A stretch of 53,502 nucleotides of DNA, from assembly GCA_937949545.1 (NCBI GenBank), contig CALEDR010000038.1, positions 1 to 53,502 of the forward strand, read 5' to 3'. How positions within the stretch are numbered: the stretch's first letter is position 1; every line of letters starts with the position of its first letter. The DNA comes from an uncultured Phycisphaerae bacterium. GTDB lineage: Bacteria > Planctomycetota > Phycisphaerae > Sedimentisphaerales > Anaerohalosphaeraceae. The notes beneath the pieces are model-generated. The model searched no databases, was not told the origin of the DNA, and was given only the letters and a program-made list of their open reading frames with translations. Below, piece after piece: positions 12,413 to 49,638 of the stretch. The position numbers and the translations under genes are program-made.

Positions 12413-12591
12413 CTGTCACTCCCGCGACTTGTTCTCCGAAGCTTTCGAGTGAAGGACGAAAGCGGGCAGCATAGAATAGCCCCGTCCGCAAGGGCGGGGA
12501 AAAAGAGAATGAAAATCCCATCCCATCTTCCCTGGGCTTGCGCCCGGGGCTATTCCCCCTGTCACTCCCGCGACTTGTTCTCCGAAGCTTT
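12413..12591. repeat. Duplicated 33-bp segment with GC-rich palindromes
   Basis: A 33-bp sequence starting CTGTCACTCCCGCGAC and ending CTCCGAAGCTTT is present perfectly at 12413-12445 and 12559-12591. Between the copies are hairpins such as CCCCGTCC-GCAA-GGGCGGGG and a ccctgggcttgcgcccgggg palindrome; another (GCGCCC..GGGCGC) lies near 12655-12675. No gene is apparent from 11.9 to 12.77 kb. These resemble intergenic palindromic repeat families, but the family is not identified. Confidence 0.55.
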
Positions 12592-12772
12592 TAGCGAAGA
12601 AGGAAGGCGGGAGTCCAGAGTTTCTGAGGGAGTTTTATTCTACTATATTTACCGCGCCCCTGCTTCGGGCGCGGCTAATCCTGTTCTGCCCGCTGACACG
12701 GGCTCAACATCTCTATATGAAGTCTCTCGTTTTCCGCCGACCGCCGGCGGGATTTTCTTCATTCTTCCTTTA

Positions 12773-13072
12773 TAACTCTTCATTTCCCAAATCGGGGTCA
12801 GATACAACTCGAATGCTTCGTTTTCGCCGCAACAGTCAGTTGTGTCTGGCTCCCAAATCGGGGTCAGATACAACGGAGTGGGGATTGCAGTTGGCCGCGT
12901 ATGCGTTGTGTCTGGCTCCCAAATCGGGGTCAGATACAACTTTTGAAGAACTGAAAACGGACTATAAAGCGTTGTGTCTGGCTCCCAAATCGGGGTCAGA
13001 TACAACCAACCGGCCGCAGCAGTCGCGGCCGTCTTAGTTGTGTCTGGCTCCCAAATCGGGGTCAGATACAAC
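12773..13072 (-). CRISPR. CRISPR array, 5 repeats and 4 spacers (type V-F associated)
   Basis: Four identical 36-bp repeats at 12839-12874, 12905-12940, 12971-13006 and 13037-13072, plus a terminal copy at 12773-12808 whose outer 12 bases have decayed. All four spacers are 30 bp (12809-12838, 12875-12904, 12941-12970, 13007-13036). On the minus strand the repeat begins GTTGTATCTGACC and ends AGCCAGACACAAC; its ends are complementary and can form a long stem with G-U pairs. The decayed copy is at the end far from the effector gene, which supports minus-strand transcription with the leader side at about 13073. Neither cas1 nor cas2 is nearby. Confidence 0.95.
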
Positions 13073-13084
13073 TGTCCCGTCGTA

Positions 13085-13240
13085 TCTTGTTATCTGATCC
13101 CGATTTAGAGCAGTTAATGAGTAAAAAAACCAGGATTTTTGTCAAAAAAAATCCTTTCAAAATGCGGTTTTTTTCTCACCTTCGGGCGTTTTACGCCAAA
13201 GCGCTATCCGCTGTTTGCGGACACAACACGCCCCAGACGA
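13085..13240 (-). ncRNA. Candidate tracrRNA with split anti-repeat
   Basis: This gap between the effector stop and the array has no gene. On the minus strand it carries two segments complementary to the crRNA repeat. GTTGTGTC (13227-13220) matches the last 8 bases of the repeat. A 25-nt segment (13113-13089, beginning CTGCTCTAAATCGGG) pairs with most of the first 28 bases, with a few bulges and wobbles. Between them are hairpins at 13207-13221, 13185-13197 and 13132-13155. The order effector, tracrRNA, array, with an anti-repeat in two parts, is the layout known for Cas12f1. A U-rich hairpin at 13132-13155 could also act as a weak terminator. The 5' end is not defined. Confidence 0.7.
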
Positions 13241-14468
13241 TTACTCGTCTGATTCCTCAAGGCCCTTTTGGGCCATATCTTTCGGTATTTTAACACCTCC
13301 GCGAGCAATATTCAAGGCCGCATTATAATCCGCGTTCGACTCAAAACCGCAGTTGGTGCACTGAAACTGCGCTTGAGTTTTCCGGTTCTCTTTCGCAATG
13401 TGCCCGCACTGGCTGCACGCCTGAGAAGTATACTGGGCTTTCAGTTTTTCTACACGGATCCCTTCCCGTTTGGCCTTATATTCTATCATCTGCTGGAGCT
13501 CATAATAACTCCAGTTCCGCAGGATCGTCTGGCTGGCGTCATAGCCGCTCAGGTCTTCCATCCGGATCACGGCGGCTTTGTATTTTTTCGCAAACTGAAT
13601 AATTTTCTTGCTGATTTTGTGATTAAAACTGTGAACAAACCGGCGTTCTTTGTCCTGCATCTTAAAAATCGCTTGATCAACTTTTTGCCGACCGTGCTGG
13701 CTGTTGGACGGGATAAATTCCCGCTGCCGGCTGCGCTGCTTTTTCTGCATCGCAAACCGCTTGAGAAGATTCGAACCGCCGATATAGGCACGAGCCGCAC
13801 CATTGTTTAAAGCACAAACCGCAGGCACCGAAATCCCTAAATCCACACCCACCGCAACGGCCTCATCCTTTTCGCTGCCTTGCTCCGGAATGCCCACACA
13901 CAGCAGCAAAAACCATTTCTTCTTTCGCCAATCCTTGACAATCTGACTGCCGCTGGCCTTGTAGACTCCGTCCAGGATCCGCTGAACAATCGAGCGGTTG
14001 CCGCTGCGGTCTTTGCCAAACAATAGAGAGATCAATTGTCTGGATCCATCGCAGAACATACTCCTTCTCTTCTTTTCGGAGGTGAATGTCCTCATTGTGC
14101 AGCGGAAGCCATCCGTTGCGGTACGTTCGAAGCGAACGTTCCCCTTTCAGCAAGCCGTTTTTTAAGTCCGCCTGAAAATCCTGATAAACCTTGGTACCAA
14201 TATCTCTGGCAAAATAAGAGGGCAGATCGCGAAACTTTTCTCTTAAATAACGATAACCGCTGTTTTTGAAGCTGCAGCCATATTTTTGTTGCCAGTAATC
14301 ATTCTGTTTTTGTTCCGGAGCTTTGTGGTCGAGCATGTCCTGCCAGGCCGTATAATAGTGTGTCATTACTTTGTTGGCCATCAGGCGGCACTGCTTGAGC
14401 CATTCTTGAATCTTGGGGTAATCCTCTTTGTTTCGGCAGGCGATTTCAATCTTTCGGGTAACAATCAT
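13241..14468 (-). pseudogene. cas12f: Cas12f-like miniature CRISPR effector nuclease, one frameshift
   Basis: RNA-guided DNA nuclease of type V-F by resemblance. Reading from ATG 14468 (GGAGGG 5 bases upstream) and dropping one base of the TTT at 14020-14018 gives about 408 residues. RuvC motifs: Asp209 in VGVDLGIS, Glu304 in RMEDLSGY, Asp380 in NADYNAALN. A zinc ribbon CSQC..CTNC sits between the last two. QRILDGVYKASGSQIVKD and NWSYYELQQMIEYKA strongly recall AsCas12f1 (422 residues; recalled, not aligned by tool). An adjacent 36-bp repeat array and anti-repeat argue against an ordinary IS605 TnpB. As given, frame 1 runs to 13863 and frame 2 opens at 14095. The shift may be real decay, a sequencing error or, less likely, programmed. 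Confidence 0.85.
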
Positions 14469-14815
14469 AAAAACCCTCCATTCCGCATATTCACAGTACC
14501 CTCGTCACATATTGTTCGATCTGCCGCGGTTTCTGCCGCGCCCTTTTCGACCATTCGTTCGTACATCATTGTACTTGCCGAACCTCTTCGGTCAATCGTT
14601 CAAGTCCATAAAACGAACAGCCCAACGAAAAAAATAGCCCCTGACACCAAGCCCTCCGTCGACACCCCCCCACATCTTCCGTTCATCCATACCCATTTCT
14701 TAATCCGCGTCCATCCGTGTTCATCCGTGGTGAATTCTCTTTGATCTGCGAAATCCGCGGTTGCCTTTTGCCTCTTCTTCTGGTATAATATCCCCAATTT
14801 GAGAAGGAGGAACAA
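14469..14815. other. Gene-free stretch upstream of cas12f with dispersed repeats
   Basis: No credible gene is seen. From about 14.70 to 14.765 kb there are repeats of the kind atccgtgttcatccgtggtg and ctgcgaaatccgcggttg, related to those at the start of the window. The stretch ends in a promoter (14761-14789). The cas12f promoter must lie in the left part, but no clear -35/-10 pair was found there. Confidence 0.5.
14761..14789 (+). promoter_or_regulatory. Strong predicted promoter with extended -10
   Basis: TTGCCT (14761-14766), 17-base spacer, TATAAT (14784-14789) preceded by TGG (extended -10). It is followed by GAAGGAGG (14803-14810) and an ATG at 14816. The same TTGCCT-17-TATAAT layout precedes lepA. 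Confidence 0.6.
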
Positions 14816-15154
14816 ATGGGCTTAAAACGAAGGGGCAAGCAGACAACTCCATTTTTATTGGTGTGTCACAGTCCTTCTATTCTGGCACTTCCGATTTTTA
14901 GGCTGTCCCCTCTTCTTTTGGCATCTTCCGGACACATCAGGGGGCCAGCGCGTTTACGGCACGTTTGCCGGTTGTTTCTATCACGTTTGCAACGCGTTTG
15001 TGCGCGTTTTAATCGGTATTTTTCCCGATGCCGATCGCTCAAAAACCGCATTTTCGGCATCAAAAACGAACTTTTTGCCTTTTCTTGTTTTTTTTCTCTG
15101 TTACACTATTTTCTCTGTTACACTATACTGTTTCAAAAAATACGGCAGGAGTGA
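14816..15154 (+). CDS. Unrecognised open frame behind a strong promoter and ribosome site
   Basis: A 112-codon frame with an ideal start context (GAAGGAGG, 5-base gap, ATG) right after the 14761-14789 promoter. Its protein is odd: rich in Arg, Leu, Phe, Ser and Cys, with no recognised domain. It looks like non-coding DNA read through from a real start. The opposite strand holds a 65-residue Arg/Lys-rich frame (14866-15063) that is equally unfamiliar. It may be the head of a gene whose body was lost, or the start signals may serve a leader for the RNase gene downstream. Low confidence as a real protein. Confidence 0.25.
   Translation: MGLKRRGKQTTPFLLVCHSPSILALPIFRLSPLLLASSGHIRGPARLRHVCRLFLSRLQRVCARFNRYFSRCRSLKNRIFGIKNELFAFSCFFSLLHYFLCYTILFQKIRQE
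15093..15126. repeat. 17-bp tandem duplication
   Basis: TTTCTCTGTTACACTAT occurs twice back to back (15093-15109, 15110-15126) just upstream of the RNase HII-like gene. Each copy contains TACACT, a -10-like hexamer. Confidence 0.8.
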
Positions 15155-45077: not shown

Positions 45078-46186
45078 AAATCGCAGAAATAGAACGGCTG
45101 CTCGAGGAAATTGCTCCGCTGAGACTGGCACAGGAGTGGGACAATGTCGGATTCCTGCTCGGCGACCGCAGGCGGGACATCCAAACCATCCTGCTGACGA
45201 TTGATACGACGATGGCGGTTGTCGCGGAGGCTAAAGCCGCAAAAGCGGACCTGATTTTGGCGTATCATCCGATTATCTGGGATGGGCTGAAAAAGATTAC
45301 CGCCGACGGGCCGACGGCTCCGATTTATGCCCTGATTCGTGAGGGCATCGGTGTTTTTTCCATTCATACGGCTTTTGATACCGTGCTGGGCGGGGTCAAT
45401 GATGCCTTGGCGGAGATTCTTGAGATTCAGGACCCGAAACCCCTCGGGGATTTTGTCCCCGACCCCAAAGGGCCTCAATACAAGATTGTTACGTTTGTGC
45501 CCACGGATTCCGTCAATCAGGTTGCTCAGGCCCTTTATGAAGCCGGCGCCGGCGCCATCGGCCGTTACTCCCATTGCGGATTTCAAACGGTCGGGACGGG
45601 GACATTTAAGCCCCTCAAAGGTGCCAAGCCGACCATCGGCCAAAGAGGCAAATTGGAAAGAGTGCAGGAAATCCGTCTGGAAACCGTCGTGTCCGCCGAC
45701 AAGGTGCAGGCGGCGGTGGCCGCCCTTCGGAGGTCTCATCCCTATGAGACGCCGGCGTTTGATGTGCTGCGCCATTATGACGTGGAAAACCGCCTCGGGT
45801 TAGGCCGTTTCGGCAAACTGCGCAAGCCATTGAGTATCCAGCAGGTCCTTGAAAAAGTCCGCCGAGCAACCGGCACAAAAGCCATCGGGATTGTTGGCCC
45901 GCACAAGAGGCTTGTACAAACAGCGGCGGTCTGTGCGGGCAGTTGCGGAAAGATTTTAAATGCCGTAATAGATGAGAGATGCGATTTGTATCTGACGGGT
46001 GAGATGAAGCATCATCAGGCCTTGGCGGCCGCTGAGTCCGGGTTGACCTGTCTGTGTCTGTCTCATTCCAATTCGGAACGATTTGCTCTGAAAATCCTGG
46101 CTCGGAAATTGAAAAAACACCTCCGAAATGTCACAATACGGCTCAGCAAAAACGATAAGGACCCGTTTGTATGGAAAAAGATTTGA
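45074..46186 (+). CDS. Nif3-like dinuclear metal centre protein
   Basis: A 370-residue member of the NIF3/YqfO/YbgI family (sometimes labelled GTP cyclohydrolase I type 2). Metal-binding signatures: QEWDNVGFLLGD near the start, LILAYHPIIWDGLK, and the C-terminal LYLTGEMKHHQALAA and CLCLSHSNSERFAL. An inserted central domain (about residues 130-235, KIVTFVPTDSVNQVAQALYEAG to RSHPYETPAFDV) identifies the longer YqfO type. The cellular role is not firmly known. It overlaps pabC by 4 bases and scpB by 16. Confidence 0.92.
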   Translation: MKIAEIERLLEEIAPLRLAQEWDNVGFLLGDRRRDIQTILLTIDTTMAVVAEAKAAKADLILAYHPIIWDGLKKITADGPTAPIYALIREGIGVFSIHTAFDTVLGGVNDALAEILEIQDPKPLGDFVPDPKGPQYKIVTFVPTDSVNQVAQALYEAGAGAIGRYSHCGFQTVGTGTFKPLKGAKPTIGQRGKLERVQEIRLETVVSADKVQAAVAALRRSHPYETPAFDVLRHYDVENRLGLGRFGKLRKPLSIQQVLEKVRRATGTKAIGIVGPHKRLVQTAAVCAGSCGKILNAVIDERCDLYLTGEMKHHQALAAAESGLTCLCLSHSNSERFALKILARKLKKHLRNVTIRLSKNDKDPFVWKKI

Positions 46187-46872
46187 ACGAGCAGGATAAA
46201 ATCGACAATCAAATAGGCCAGCCGGAGCCGTCTGCTGATCTTTCGAAGGCCGCGGAGAATGAGCCGGTGTCGAGTGAACCGCCGCGGACGGAATCGGAGG
46301 ATTTTCAGGAGGAGATGGAGGCATGGCCGGCGGAGGAAGCCGGTCTGACTCCCATGCTCGAAACCGTAATCGAAGCGGTTCTGTTTGCCAGTGATGAACC
46401 GCTCAAGCCCGCCAAGCTGGCGGAGATTGCCGAAGCCGGCACCCTTAAGCAGATTCACCAATGCGTTCGGGATTTGAACCGCAAGTACCGGGAAGGCGGT
46501 TTTTCATTCCGCATCGAAAAGATTGCCGGCGGGTATCAGATGATGACGCTGCCGATTTTTAATCCGTGGCTGTCGAAGCTGGTGAAGGTCAGGGCGGACA
46601 ACAAACTGTCGCCGGCGGCACTGGAGACCCTGGCAATTATTGCGTATAAGCAACCGATCATTCGAGCGGATATCGAGGCCATCCGGGGCGTGGCCAGCGG
46701 GGAGGTTATTCGCAATCTAATGTATAAGGGGCTGGTGAAAATTGTCGGTCGAGCGGAGATCCTGGGCCGACCGATGCAGTATGGCACAACGCAGAAATTC
46801 CTGGAAGTTTTCGGACTGAATTCACTCAAAGACCTGCCCAATGTCGAAGAACTCAAAAACCCCCAAACTTGA
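46171..46872 (+). CDS. scpB: Segregation and condensation protein B
   Basis: Winged-helix subunit of the SMC-ScpA-ScpB complex that organises and segregates chromosomes. It has 233 residues, including an acidic N-terminal extension of about 55 residues. Core: VIEAVLFASDEPLKPAKLAEI, GGYQMMTLPIFNPWLSKL, LSPAALETLAIIAYKQPIIRADIEAIRGV, YKGLVKIVGRAEILGRPMQYGTTQKFLEVFGL. Its last 13 or so codons lie in a 40-bp sequence that is repeated at the start of mutY; the ScpB tail NPQT and its stop are preserved. scpA is not in this window. Confidence 0.95.
   Translation: MEKDLNEQDKIDNQIGQPEPSADLSKAAENEPVSSEPPRTESEDFQEEMEAWPAEEAGLTPMLETVIEAVLFASDEPLKPAKLAEIAEAGTLKQIHQCVRDLNRKYREGGFSFRIEKIAGGYQMMTLPIFNPWLSKLVKVRADNKLSPAALETLAIIAYKQPIIRADIEAIRGVASGEVIRNLMYKGLVKIVGRAEILGRPMQYGTTQKFLEVFGLNSLKDLPNVEELKNPQT
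46826..46865 (+). repeat. 40-bp direct repeat, left copy (scpB 3' end)
   Basis: Perfect 40-bp match to 48523-48562 (begins TCAAAGACCTGCCCAATG, ends AAAACCCCCA). Similarity continues imperfectly to the stop codon. It marks the left edge of the tcmP cassette. Confidence 0.9.
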
Positions 46873-46903
46873 GTTTTAAATACTTTCAAGAAGGAGGAGA
46901 AAA

Positions 46904-47767
46904 ATGGCTAAAAAAAGAAATTTGAGATTTGATGAGGTTGGGTATTGGTCTGAAATTAAGCTCGATATTTTGCAAAAATACGGCAGTGCTTATACAACAA
47001 TTATGTCAAAGCAGAGATCAATAAAGGGATATTATTATATTGATGGATTTGCTGGGCCGGGTGTTCATATATCCAAAACCAAAAAGAAACAAATTCCGGG
47101 CAGTCCTTTGATTGCCCTTGATACGAAACCGCCTTTTACAGGGTATTATTTTATCGATCATAATGAGGAAAAAGTTGACTATTTAAGGCAGTTGGCTGCG
47201 GATTGTTCGAATGTTAAGTTTTACTCGGGTGATTGCAATAAGATCTTGCTTGAGGATATTTTTCCATCTATCCAGTATTCAGAGTATAAGCGTGCCCTGT
47301 GCTTATTGGATCCTTATGGACTTCATCTGAATTGGGAGGTTATGCTGGCTGCCGGACAATCCAAGGCCATTGAAATCTTTCTTAATTTTCCTGTAATGGA
47401 TATGAATGGAAATGTATTATGGGGGAATCCGGACAAAGTATTGCCGGAACAAGCAGACCGATTAACATCTTTTTGGGGAGATGAAAGTTGGAAAAAAGCG
47501 GCCTATAAAAAGCAGGGAGGGCTTTTCGGTGATATAGAAGAAAAAACGTCGAATATAGCAATTGCCCTTGCGTTCCAAAGAAGATTGAAAGGTGTTGCAG
47601 GTTTTGGATACGTGTCGAATCCTATGCCGATGAGAAATGAAAATGGGGCTGTTATCTATTATCTTTTTTTTGCTACGCCAAACAAAACCGGGCACAAAAT
47701 TGTAGATGATATTATGGAAACGTATCGGGCCAGAGGGGCTTCCGATGGCAGCTCAGACATCGATTGA
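46904..47767 (+). CDS. tcmP: Three-Cys-motif partner protein TcmP
   Basis: A 287-residue protein matching the TcmP family, defined by its habit of sitting beside Gp37/Gp68-like three-Cys proteins. Recognised parts: VGYWSEIKLDILQKYGSAYTTIM, GYYYIDGFAGPGVHIS, GSPLIALDTKPPF, YYFIDHNEEKVDYLRQL and CLLDPYGLHLNWEVM. The DGFAGPG and FIDHNEEK segments recall a SAM-methyltransferase-like fold. The biochemical role is unknown. Start has AGGAGG about 7 bases upstream. Codon use is AT-richer than surrounding genes, a sign of transfer. It overlaps the next gene by 23 bases. Confidence 0.88.
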   Translation: MAKKRNLRFDEVGYWSEIKLDILQKYGSAYTTIMSKQRSIKGYYYIDGFAGPGVHISKTKKKQIPGSPLIALDTKPPFTGYYFIDHNEEKVDYLRQLAADCSNVKFYSGDCNKILLEDIFPSIQYSEYKRALCLLDPYGLHLNWEVMLAAGQSKAIEIFLNFPVMDMNGNVLWGNPDKVLPEQADRLTSFWGDESWKKAAYKKQGGLFGDIEEKTSNIAIALAFQRRLKGVAGFGYVSNPMPMRNENGAVIYYLFFATPNKTGHKIVDDIMETYRARGASDGSSDID

Positions 47768-48491
47768 ATGGACACAATGTACGTGGAATCCGGTAACCGG
47801 CTGTTCGAAAATCAGTGCCGGCTGTGCTCATTGTTATGCGGAGCGGATGGCCAGACGGCTGTGTGCAATGGGGCAGCCCCGTTATCGCAACGGCTTTCAG
47901 GTCACGGTGCATCCGGAAACGCTGGAGGAACCTTATGGGTGGAGAAAGCCCCGGTTGGTCTTTGTGAATTCGATGAGTGATTTGTTCCATGAAGAAGTAC
48001 CGTTTTCTTTTATTCGTCGGATTTTTGAGGTGATGAACCGCTGCCCGCATCATACGTTTCAGATTTTAACAAAACGATCCCATCGCTTGGTGGAGTTGGC
48101 CCCGCTGCTGGAGTGGACGCCGAATGTTTGGATTGGGGTGACGATTGAAAAATCTGATTATTTGTACCGTCTTGACCATCTGCGGCGTGTCAACGCTTCT
48201 GTAAGATTCTTGTCTCTGGAACCCCTGCTTGGACCGATGGATACTTTAACATTGGAAGGGGTTGATTGGGTCATTGTCGGCGGGGAATCCGGTCCGCAGG
48301 CACGGCCGATGAAAGAAGAGTGGGTTCTTCAGATACACGAAACCTGTTTGAAAGAACGAGTTCCTTTCTTTTTCAAGCAATGGGGCGGTTTCAACAAAAA
48401 AAAAGCAGGACGCCATCTGCGTGGACGTACGTGGGATGAAAAGCCCTTCGTTGTCCTTCAAGGAAACGACTTAAACGGGTTGCCTGTTTAA
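47745..48491 (+). CDS. Gp37/Gp68-like (DUF5131) three-Cys protein
   Basis: A 248-residue protein of the phage Gp37/Gp68 (DUF5131) family. The defining motif is Cys20-x6-Cys27-x2-Cys30 in NPVTGCSKISAGCAHCYAERM; its spacing resembles an iron-sulfur or radical SAM-like cluster site. Other family segments: RKPRLVFVNSMSDLFHEEVP, HHTFQILTKRSHRL, NVWIGVTIE, VRFLSLEPLLGP, VDWVIVGGESGPQARPM and PFFFKQWGG. The start at ATG 47745 lies in the tcmP end with GAGGGG 7 bases upstream. The two form a conserved pair, but their reaction is not known; roles in DNA or RNA modification or phage defence are only speculation. Confidence 0.9.
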   Translation: MAAQTSIEWTQCTWNPVTGCSKISAGCAHCYAERMARRLCAMGQPRYRNGFQVTVHPETLEEPYGWRKPRLVFVNSMSDLFHEEVPFSFIRRIFEVMNRCPHHTFQILTKRSHRLVELAPLLEWTPNVWIGVTIEKSDYLYRLDHLRRVNASVRFLSLEPLLGPMDTLTLEGVDWVIVGGESGPQARPMKEEWVLQIHETCLKERVPFFFKQWGGFNKKKAGRHLRGRTWDEKPFVVLQGNDLNGLPV

Positions 48492-48522
48492 CATCGCTCT
48501 TTTCTTTTTGAGCTTGCTTGAT

Positions 48523-48562
48523 TCAAAGACCTGCCCAATGTCGAAGAACTCAAAAACCCCCA
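48523..48562 (+). repeat. 40-bp direct repeat, right copy (mutY 5' end)
   Basis: Perfect copy of 46826-46865. It contains the mutY start codon (48538-48540) and, in the other frame, the last codons of a ScpB tail. Confidence 0.9.
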
Positions 48563-49638
48563 GACCTGAAGTAATACGCAAGGCTCTTCTGGCTTGGTGG
48601 GATCAGGGGCATCGGGATTTGCCGTGGCGGCGGACAAAAAACCCCTATGCTGTCTGGCTGGCGGAGATGATGCTTCAGCAGACACGCATTGAAACCGTCA
48701 TTCCTTATTATGAACGGTTTCTCCGGCATTTTCCAACGATCGAATCGCTGGCGAGGGCCAAACTGGATTTGGTACTGAAACTGTGGGAGGGGCTGGGCTA
48801 TTACAGTCGTGCGCGCAATCTGCACAAGGCCGCCCAGATGGTTGTTCGGGAGTATGAGGGGCGTTTGCCAGACAATGTCCGCGATTTACAAAAGCTTCCC
48901 GGTGTCGGCCGCTATACCGCCGGAGCCGTGGCGAGTATCGCCTTCCATCAGCCGGCGCCGCTGGTGGACGGCAATGTCATTCGGGTCCTGTGTCGGCTGT
49001 TTTGCATCCGGGAGGAGCCGACCCAATCCGCCGTCAAAAAGAAACTTTGGCAGCTGGCGGAAACGCTGGTTTGTCCCCGGCGTCCGGGGGATTTCAACCA
49101 ATCGCTGATGGAGCTGGGGGCCGTTGTCTGCAAGCCCGGCCTGCCGGATTGCCGGATTTGTCCGCTGGAGACGTTTTGTCTGGCCAAACAAAAGGGGCTT
49201 CAAGCCGTTCTTCCGAAAATGCCCAAAAGCGGAAAACTGCCTGAATATGAAATTGCGGTTGGGATTGTCTTTCGAAACGGCCGGGTTCTGATTGCCAAAC
49301 GAAAGGCCGAAGGACTTTTGGGGGGCTTGTGGGAATTTCCCGGCGGCAAGAGAGAAGCAGGCGAGACGCTCGAGCAAACGGCTGCCCGCGAGATTCGAGA
49401 GGAGACGGGAATTGCCGTTTCCGTTGGTCCGTGCCTGACGGTTGTGCGGCATGCCTATTCACATTTTAAGATAGTTCTGCATGCTTTTTTGTGCGATTAC
49501 CTCAGCGGGAAAGCCGAGCCACTCGAGTGCGATGCGGTCAAATGGGTATGGCCCAGCCAATTGAAAAGGTATGCATTTCCGGCGGCTAATCATCCGATTT
49601 TTGCACGTCTAACTGAGCGGGCGGGTGTGAACGATTGA
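48538..49638 (+). CDS. mutY: Adenine DNA glycosylase
   Basis: Removes adenine paired with 8-oxoguanine. It has 366 residues. Helix-hairpin-helix LPGVGRYTAGAVASIAF and catalytic Asp in PLVDGNVIRVL. Glu in MMLQQTRIETV. The iron-sulfur motif CKPGLPDCRICPLETFC has the C-x6-C-x2-C-x5-C spacing. The C-terminal NUDIX-like domain that reads 8-oxoG is present, with box GGKREAGETLEQTAAREIREETGI. The start ATG 48538 lies in the 40-bp repeat. Translation there was probably coupled to scpB before the cassette came in; no ribosome site is seen now. Confidence 0.95.
   Translation: MSKNSKTPRPEVIRKALLAWWDQGHRDLPWRRTKNPYAVWLAEMMLQQTRIETVIPYYERFLRHFPTIESLARAKLDLVLKLWEGLGYYSRARNLHKAAQMVVREYEGRLPDNVRDLQKLPGVGRYTAGAVASIAFHQPAPLVDGNVIRVLCRLFCIREEPTQSAVKKKLWQLAETLVCPRRPGDFNQSLMELGAVVCKPGLPDCRICPLETFCLAKQKGLQAVLPKMPKSGKLPEYEIAVGIVFRNGRVLIAKRKAEGLLGGLWEFPGGKREAGETLEQTAAREIREETGIAVSVGPCLTVVRHAYSHFKIVLHAFLCDYLSGKAEPLECDAVKWVWPSQLKRYAFPAANHPIFARLTERAGVND

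What the first reader, a model, noticed from the sequence alone, without database searches (positions are those of the whole stretch)
46826..48562. Gene-pair cassette inserted exactly in the scpB-mutY overlap, flanked by a 40-bp direct repeat
The repeat contains both the ScpB tail and the mutY start codon, and both host genes remain whole. The 1.7-kb unit has only tcmP and a Gp37/Gp68-like gene, with AT-richer codon use. It resembles an integrated element with att-like ends but no recombinase, and could be a minimal mobile cassette.
Basis: partly seen in the sequence, partly recalled or inferred. Interest (0 to 1): 0.85.

Follow-up and report, generated by a model that had tools for sequence, protein, structure and literature searches.

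The report
Gene pair bounded by duplicated gene tail
A two-gene cassette that resembles a candidate virus-defence module sits between two overlapping housekeeping genes and is bordered by two copies of the end of the first gene, so it leaves both genes whole and can be lost without a scar, as a sister species appears to have done.

Summary
A 40-bp exact direct repeat (45 of 47 up to the scpB stop) flanks a 1,650-bp unit holding only tcmP and a DUF5131 (Gp37/Gp68) gene. The left copy is the scpB tail; the right copy carries the mutY start. Relatives G003 and G002 have the overlap once and no cassette; G004 has the same cassette and junction. G003 and G004 are sisters next to the site, and the cassette is about as diverged between G000 and G004 as the flanks, so it was most likely inserted in their ancestor and lost precisely in G003. 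The pair matches PADLOC's PDC-M41 (phage defence candidate); models suggest an RlmJ-like methyltransferase and a radical-SAM barrel. Six of 93 pair loci, from several phyla, have flanking repeats at or beside a gene's 3' end (scpB, gpsA, ResIII, Eco57I methylase, two tRNAs), against 1 of 233 control placements. Repeats range from 22 to 126 bp; no recombinase was recognised in the units. I favour host recombination at the gene tail over integrase att sites, without proof. The rate is near the published background for small variable segments: a new member of a known kind.

The parts
46171..46872 (+). scpB, intact
   Evidence: PF04079 E 2.5e-53, TIGR00281 above cut-off
46826..46872 (+). left repeat copy: ScpB tail up to the stop codon
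46841..46879 (+). dead mutY start frame (12 codons and stop) kept in the left copy
46904..47767 (+). tcmP (TIGR04474; PDC-M41A), RlmJ-like methyltransferase fold
47745..48491 (+). Gp37/Gp68-like DUF5131 (PF07505; PDC-M41B), radical-SAM-like fold, overlaps tcmP
48492..48522 (+). 31-nt spacer from the gp37 stop to the right repeat
48523..48569 (+). right repeat copy with the mutY start; its 47 nt equal the single copy in the empty site of G003
   Evidence: (sequences compared by eye)
48538..49638 (+). mutY, intact
   Evidence: TIGR01084 342 bits against cut-off 286.5

Best explanation
A two-gene module (tcmP plus DUF5131, candidate defence module PDC-M41) was inserted at the 3' end of scpB in the common ancestor of G000, G003 and G004. 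Incoming DNA carried the scpB tail next to the pair and recombined with the resident scpB tail through host recombination, either a RecA single crossover of a ligated circle or one-sided homologous plus illegitimate joining. That leaves scpB whole, then the pair, then a second scpB tail that still carries the mutY start. The pair brings its own ribosome site and is read with the scpB operon (inferred from the sequence). Recombination or slippage between the two tails later removed the pair exactly in G003. Shown: anatomy, empty and filled relatives, shared junction, flank and cassette divergence, similar repeats at five other loci. Inferred: the recombination route, the direction of change in G003, and the biochemical role (nucleic-acid modification in phage defence).
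For: Anatomy. Empty sites with a single overlap: G003 and G002. Filled with the same junction: G004. G003 and G004 are sisters next to the site: synonymous distance ScpB 0.18 and MutY 0.20, against 0.39 and 0.59 for G000-G004 and 0.39 and 0.54 for G000-G003; site patterns in the bins next to the insert. Cassette distance G000-G004 is of the flank order or lower: TcmP 0.37, Gp37 0.22, 81-95% identity in bins. Repeats around the pair at L098 (gpsA tail), L099 (ResIII gene tail), L209 (Eco57I methylase tail), L119 (tRNA-Ala) and L211 (just 3' of tRNA-Gly). 7 of 94 tested loci, 6 of 93 if G000 and G004 count once, against 1 of 233 control placements, p 0.0026; with another score, 1 of 716 control placements passed 17 while four pair loci scored 37-65. 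Repeat lengths of 22, 47, 60, 80, about 112 and 126 bp suit homology of chance length better than one fixed att core. The five scpB-adjacent TcmPs form one clade, 99/97, while 14 noncoding bases of the right copy are unchanged in G000 against G003 and 3 of 14 changed in G004, so this insertion looks younger than the oldest scpB-adjacent pairs. In E. coli, incoming DNA with one homologous end gave mainly single crossovers that duplicated 109-950 bp of the gene end (PMC3240628, passages).
Against: A 47-bp repeat at a housekeeping gene's 3' end also fits integrase att sites (8-60 bp; PMC5704250), and L119 lies in a tRNA gene. The other three scpB-adjacent pairs (G005, G027, G028) have no right repeat. 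dapB, further downstream, does not show G003 and G004 as sisters (0.52, against 0.43 for G000-G003), and some flank bins away from the site do not either, so regional exchange is possible. The Gp37 distance is lower than the flanks. No donor molecule was found. The loss in G003 could instead be two gains. The Gp37 tree does not show the labelled scpB-adjacent rows as one group (2 changes; the G027 row was left unlabelled by my oversight and lies with G005 and G028).
Confidence: 0.5

Rival explanations
1. The unit is a CIME-like or trans-mobilised site-specific element: the repeats are attL and attR in the scpB 3' end, and an integrase encoded elsewhere or since lost made the insertion and the excision.
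For: Repeat size 40-47 bp and placement at a gene 3' end fit IME/CIME rules (PMC5704250 passages). L119 has 60 bp of tRNA-Ala and L211 lies beside tRNA-Gly. Exact empty site in G003. Related pairs sit at scpB in three genera.
Against: No recombinase recognised in the window, L098, L099, L119 or L211 units (ORF lists); the extra ORFs in L119 and L209 have no Pfam match, so they stay open. Repeat lengths and targets vary, three exceed 60 bp. 36 nt of the tail are absent elsewhere in the genome and its 28-mer is absent from IMG/VR.
Confidence: 0.27
2. Old vertical presence: the pair entered behind scpB once in the family ancestor and was lost many times; the repeat in G000 and G004 is a later local duplication of the scpB tail.
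For: Five scpB-adjacent TcmPs form one clade 99/97; patchy presence within genera g1, g12, g16.
Against: The overlap is the state in G002 and G003, and the G031 sequence reads as an overlap with a TTG start. The right copy holds the overlapping mutY start, which a pair already between separate genes would not give. G005 groups with G028 rather than with G000 (84/85).
Confidence: 0.15
3. Transposon-like insertion with a long target-site duplication.
For: Direct repeat at both ends.
Against: No transposase in the unit and no convincing inverted repeat at its ends; 40-126 bp is far outside usual target duplications (recalled).
Confidence: 0.03

Closest known systems
PDC-M41 (PADLOC phage defence candidate, two genes)
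   Same: the two proteins hit its A and B models
   Different: a database candidate; the name was found in no paper of the held library, so no activity test was seen
Small variable segments flanked by direct repeats (PMC2884548, passages)
   Same: gene-scale presence/absence with flanking repeats and deletion between them
   Different: most of theirs have repeats under 30 bp; here 40-47 bp and a gene overlap is kept whole
Single-crossover gene-end duplication in E. coli (PMC3240628, passages)
   Same: foreign DNA left next to a duplicated part of a gene end
   Different: theirs is an experiment with 109-950 bp duplicated; here 47 bp, by inference
CIME / IME (PMC5704250, passages)
   Same: 8-60 bp repeats at gene 3' ends, no integration genes left
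   Different: no parent element, no transfer or integration remnant seen
Type VI effector modules displaced by one-sided homology (PMC5361080, passages)
   Same: module anchored by homology at one side, non-homologous joining at the other (proposed there)
   Different: theirs keeps orphan immunity genes, here the tail of the anchor gene

Membership tests
PDC-M41 | PDC-M41A protein | tested here: met
   E 6.1e-73
PDC-M41 | PDC-M41B protein next to it | tested here: met
   E 2.5e-119, genes overlap; PDC-M30B also hits at 6.7e-116
PDC-M41 | protects against phage | not testable with these tools
   no experiment possible; no paper found
TcmP (TIGR04474) | score above curated cut-off | tested here: met
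   205.9 against 53 bits
DUF5131 (PF07505) | score above gathering cut-off | tested here: met
   335.9 against 28.9 bits
rSAM_mob_pairA (TIGR04471) | score above curated cut-off | tested here: not met
   77.2 against 355 bits
Radical SAM enzymes | CX3CX2C motif (recalled) | tested here: not met
   invariant cysteines 20, 27, 30 in 21 sequences, i.e. CX6CX2C
Radical SAM enzymes | partial TIM-barrel fold of the superfamily | tested here: met
   spore photoproduct lyase 4rh0 Z 14.1, 196 residues, rmsd 3.0; model pLDDT 83.5
RlmJ-like methyltransferases | same fold over most of the protein | tested here: met
   6qdx_B Z 17.3, 209 residues, rmsd 3.0; fold only, not substrate
CIME / IME | direct repeats of 8-60 bp at a gene 3' end | tested here: met
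   40-47 bp in scpB
CIME / IME | att sites shared with an integrase-bearing element | tested here: inconclusive
   28-mer absent from IMG/VR, 36 nt of the tail absent elsewhere in G000; related genomes not searched for it
Insertion sequence or transposon | transposase and terminal inverted repeats | tested here: not met
Small variable segment with direct repeats | segment absent in a near relative, repeats at its base | tested here: met

The most novel reading that the evidence does not exclude
The tcmP-DUF5131 pair spreads as a recombinase-free cassette: it excises as a circle by recombination between duplicated gene tails and re-enters relatives by single crossover at the same tail, so each host gene tail becomes a reusable docking site that leaves all host genes whole.
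Probability: 0.17. Interest if true: 0.7.

Novelty: new member of a known kind. Interest (0 to 1): 0.42.

Why it matters
It gives a clear natural case, with empty and filled close relatives, of how a tiny candidate defence module with no mobility gene can enter and leave an operon of two overlapping housekeeping genes without harm. If the recombinase-free route is right, it would help explain how single-operon defence modules scatter across phyla without large mobile elements.

Tried and rejected
Transposon reading rejected. A single fixed att core across loci rejected: lengths and targets differ. L106 (pair between two radical-SAM paralogs) and L127 (direct and inverted repeats) showed up at 2.5 kb range and were not counted as tail duplications; L090 (24 bp, over 2 kb away) and L121 (inverted) were dropped too. 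A search of plasmids with scpB-mutY DNA gave no cassette context (7 records with short matches). No exact 28-mer of the tail in IMG/VR. Protein searches gave only divergent TcmP relatives in plasmids (13 records, up to 33%) and phages (5 records, up to 25%), and 161 phage records with DUF5131. Sequence search of solved structures gave nothing useful. Literature: none of the held papers names PDC-M41, DUF5131, TIGR04474 or 'radical SAM mobile pair'; four hold 'three-Cys-motif partner' or Gp37Gp68 in passing.

Rate caveat: from the table seen in PMC2884548, 10-18% of variable segments have repeats and 6-34% of those reach 30 bp, i.e. roughly 1-5%; five of 93 here reach 47 bp. So enrichment over ordinary accessory segments is not shown, only over random placements. 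In the sister genomes none of nine other gene-scale differences has a flanking repeat, a small sample. My survey took 106 loci, dropped 6 duplicates, found a pair in 97 and tested 94 (3 had too little flank). It did not include every pair locus, and its criterion (E up to 0.001, within 1.1 kb) was fixed after I had seen the first cases. Loci of one lineage may not be independent.

Full report
Observation. The window holds scpB (46171-46872), tcmP (46904-47767), a DUF5131 (Gp37/Gp68) gene (47745-48491) and mutY (48538-49638), all on the + strand. 46826-46865 equals 48523-48562 over 40 bp, and the match runs to the scpB stop as 45 of 47. The two differences are synonymous in the ScpB frame (read from the sequence). 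The left copy is the ScpB tail and still holds a dead mutY start; the right copy gives mutY its start. The unit between is 1,650 bp, holds the two genes and no recombinase.

Empty and filled sites. Among the five same-genus genomes, G004 has the pair at the same junction (right copy 44 of 47 identical to the left), G003 and G002 have the overlap once and no pair there, G001 has no pair and a spacer, and G005 has the pair behind scpB without a right repeat. In other genera G028 and G027 have it behind scpB, while G024, G030 and G016 (genus of G028) and G020 (genus of G027) do not. By reading the sequence, G031 of another genus also overlaps scpB with mutY, from a TTG, so the overlap looks old. 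Other genes lie between scpB and mutY in G034, G035, G017, G025 and G020, none with a scpB-tail repeat.

History. G003 and G004 are sisters next to the site: synonymous distances 0.18 (ScpB) and 0.20 (MutY), against 0.39 and 0.59 for G000-G004 and 0.39 and 0.54 for G000-G003, and 19, 21 and 33 sites in the three nearest 200-bp bins where G000 alone differs, against 2-5 for G003 or G004 alone. This does not hold everywhere: dapB gives 0.52 for G003-G004 and 0.43 for G000-G003, and some bins further out are mixed. The pair itself differs between G000 and G004 by 0.37 (TcmP) and 0.22 (Gp37), and by 5-19% in 200-bp bins. The simplest history is one insertion before the split and an exact loss in G003. 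Two gains are not excluded, and the low Gp37 value may mean some exchange. The 14 noncoding bases of the right copy are unchanged in G000 against G003; in G004 3 of 14 differ from G003 and 2 of 14 from its own left copy. So this insertion looks younger than the genus, though 14 bases are few. The five scpB-adjacent TcmPs form one clade (99/97 in 87 rows, bootstrap not settled), with G005 beside G028 (84/85). So related pairs may have reached the scpB end more than once, which favours homology or site choice at that tail.

Other loci. The pair is widespread and patchy: 80 loci kept of 125 in the genome collection, from many phyla, and 31 of 392 genomes of the phylum with a TcmP match, weak ones included. 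Of the 80, 79 have a DUF5131 gene beside tcmP; in L142 the contig ends 24 bases after tcmP's match. Flanking direct repeats were found at 7 of 94 tested loci, six events if G000 and G004 count once. Besides scpB they are: L098, where 13 nt after the DUF5131 stop a copy of the gpsA tail of about 112 bp begins (the first copy is split between the contig start and the end of another contig that holds the genome's only GpsA hit, so the join is inferred); L099, 126 columns at 86%, the tail of a ResIII gene; L209, 80 columns at 75%, the tail of an Eco57I-type methylase, with one more small ORF in the unit; L119, 60 bp of tRNA-Ala around the pair and one further ORF; L211, 22 bp just 3' of tRNA-Gly. 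Placements of the same shape elsewhere in the same loci gave 1 of 233, p 0.0026 on 6 of 93. The criterion was set after the first cases were seen. Of 19 relative loci of L098, one (L244, G518, GpsA 74% identical) has gpsA next to a 43% identical homologue of the same neighbour and no TcmP hit, an empty site. Between the sister genomes nine other gene-scale differences have no flanking repeat.

Function. The two proteins hit PADLOC's PDC-M41 models; PDC stands for phage defence candidate (PMC11514479, passages). The TcmP model (pLDDT 92) is nearest RlmJ, an rRNA adenine-N6 methyltransferase (Z 17.3), with a mostly conserved DPYG motif. The DUF5131 model (pLDDT 83.5) is nearest spore photoproduct lyase (Z 14.1), then viperin-like enzymes and RlmN, with three invariant cysteines spaced CX6CX2C. 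A table in PMC12445080 lists Hna (SMa2245) and a TcmP (SMa2243) of Sinorhizobium meliloti next to each other (passage); that they are neighbours is inferred from the tags. Two of our loci lie in restriction-modification genes. A joint role in modifying nucleic acid for or against phage is inferred, not shown; phages carry DUF5131 too (161 records).

Mechanism. Both a crossover at a gene tail and an integrase give 'whole gene, insert, tail copy'. I favour the former because repeat lengths range from 22 to 126 bp, targets differ, no integrase was recognised in the units, and E. coli given DNA with one homologous end mostly produced gene-end duplications by single crossover (56 of 60 clones by PCR; PMC3240628, passages). 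Integrase-made elements have 8-60 bp repeats at the same kinds of site, and decayed ones (CIMEs) are known (PMC5704250, passages), so that rival stays open. Since only insertions that duplicate the overlap leave both scpB and mutY whole, selection explains the exact look of the site.

Novelty. Small segments flanked by repeats, with deletions between them, are known from other species (PMC2884548, passages), at rates that do not make this pair clearly exceptional. The case is a clean new member of that kind; what is new here, as far as searches show, is the tie to this pair and the recurrence at gene ends.

Noticed in passing
window 12785-13085 and 13241-14468 (-): A CRISPR-like array: five copies of a repeat of about 36 nt at 66-bp spacing, next to two overlapping ORFs on the - strand that read like the two halves of a broken TnpB- or Cas12-like protein with a zinc-ribbon motif (by eye). 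A 33-bp exact repeat lies at 12413/12559. The stretch 12559-15124 is absent from G003 and G004.
   Followed up: partly
L079 7339-8972 (G002): A DUF5131 gene lies beside a 229-aa gene that is not TcmP (SUFU-like by recall); another partner for this family.
   Followed up: no
L068, L073, L075-L078 (scpB-mutY junction): In related genera several small genes lie between scpB and mutY, so this junction gains genes often.
   Followed up: partly
L119 4731-7506: A 2.8-kb island in tRNA-Ala with the pair and one 264-aa ORF without a Pfam match, no integrase recognised.
   Followed up: partly
L099 1-8657: The pair lies between a ResIII gene and an N6/N4 methylase gene, with other ORFs between, i.e. inside a likely type III restriction locus.
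   Followed up: partly
phage records: 161 phage records, 100 of them Mycobacterium and Gordonia phages, hold DUF5131 relatives; 5 records hold a TcmP-like match.
   Followed up: no
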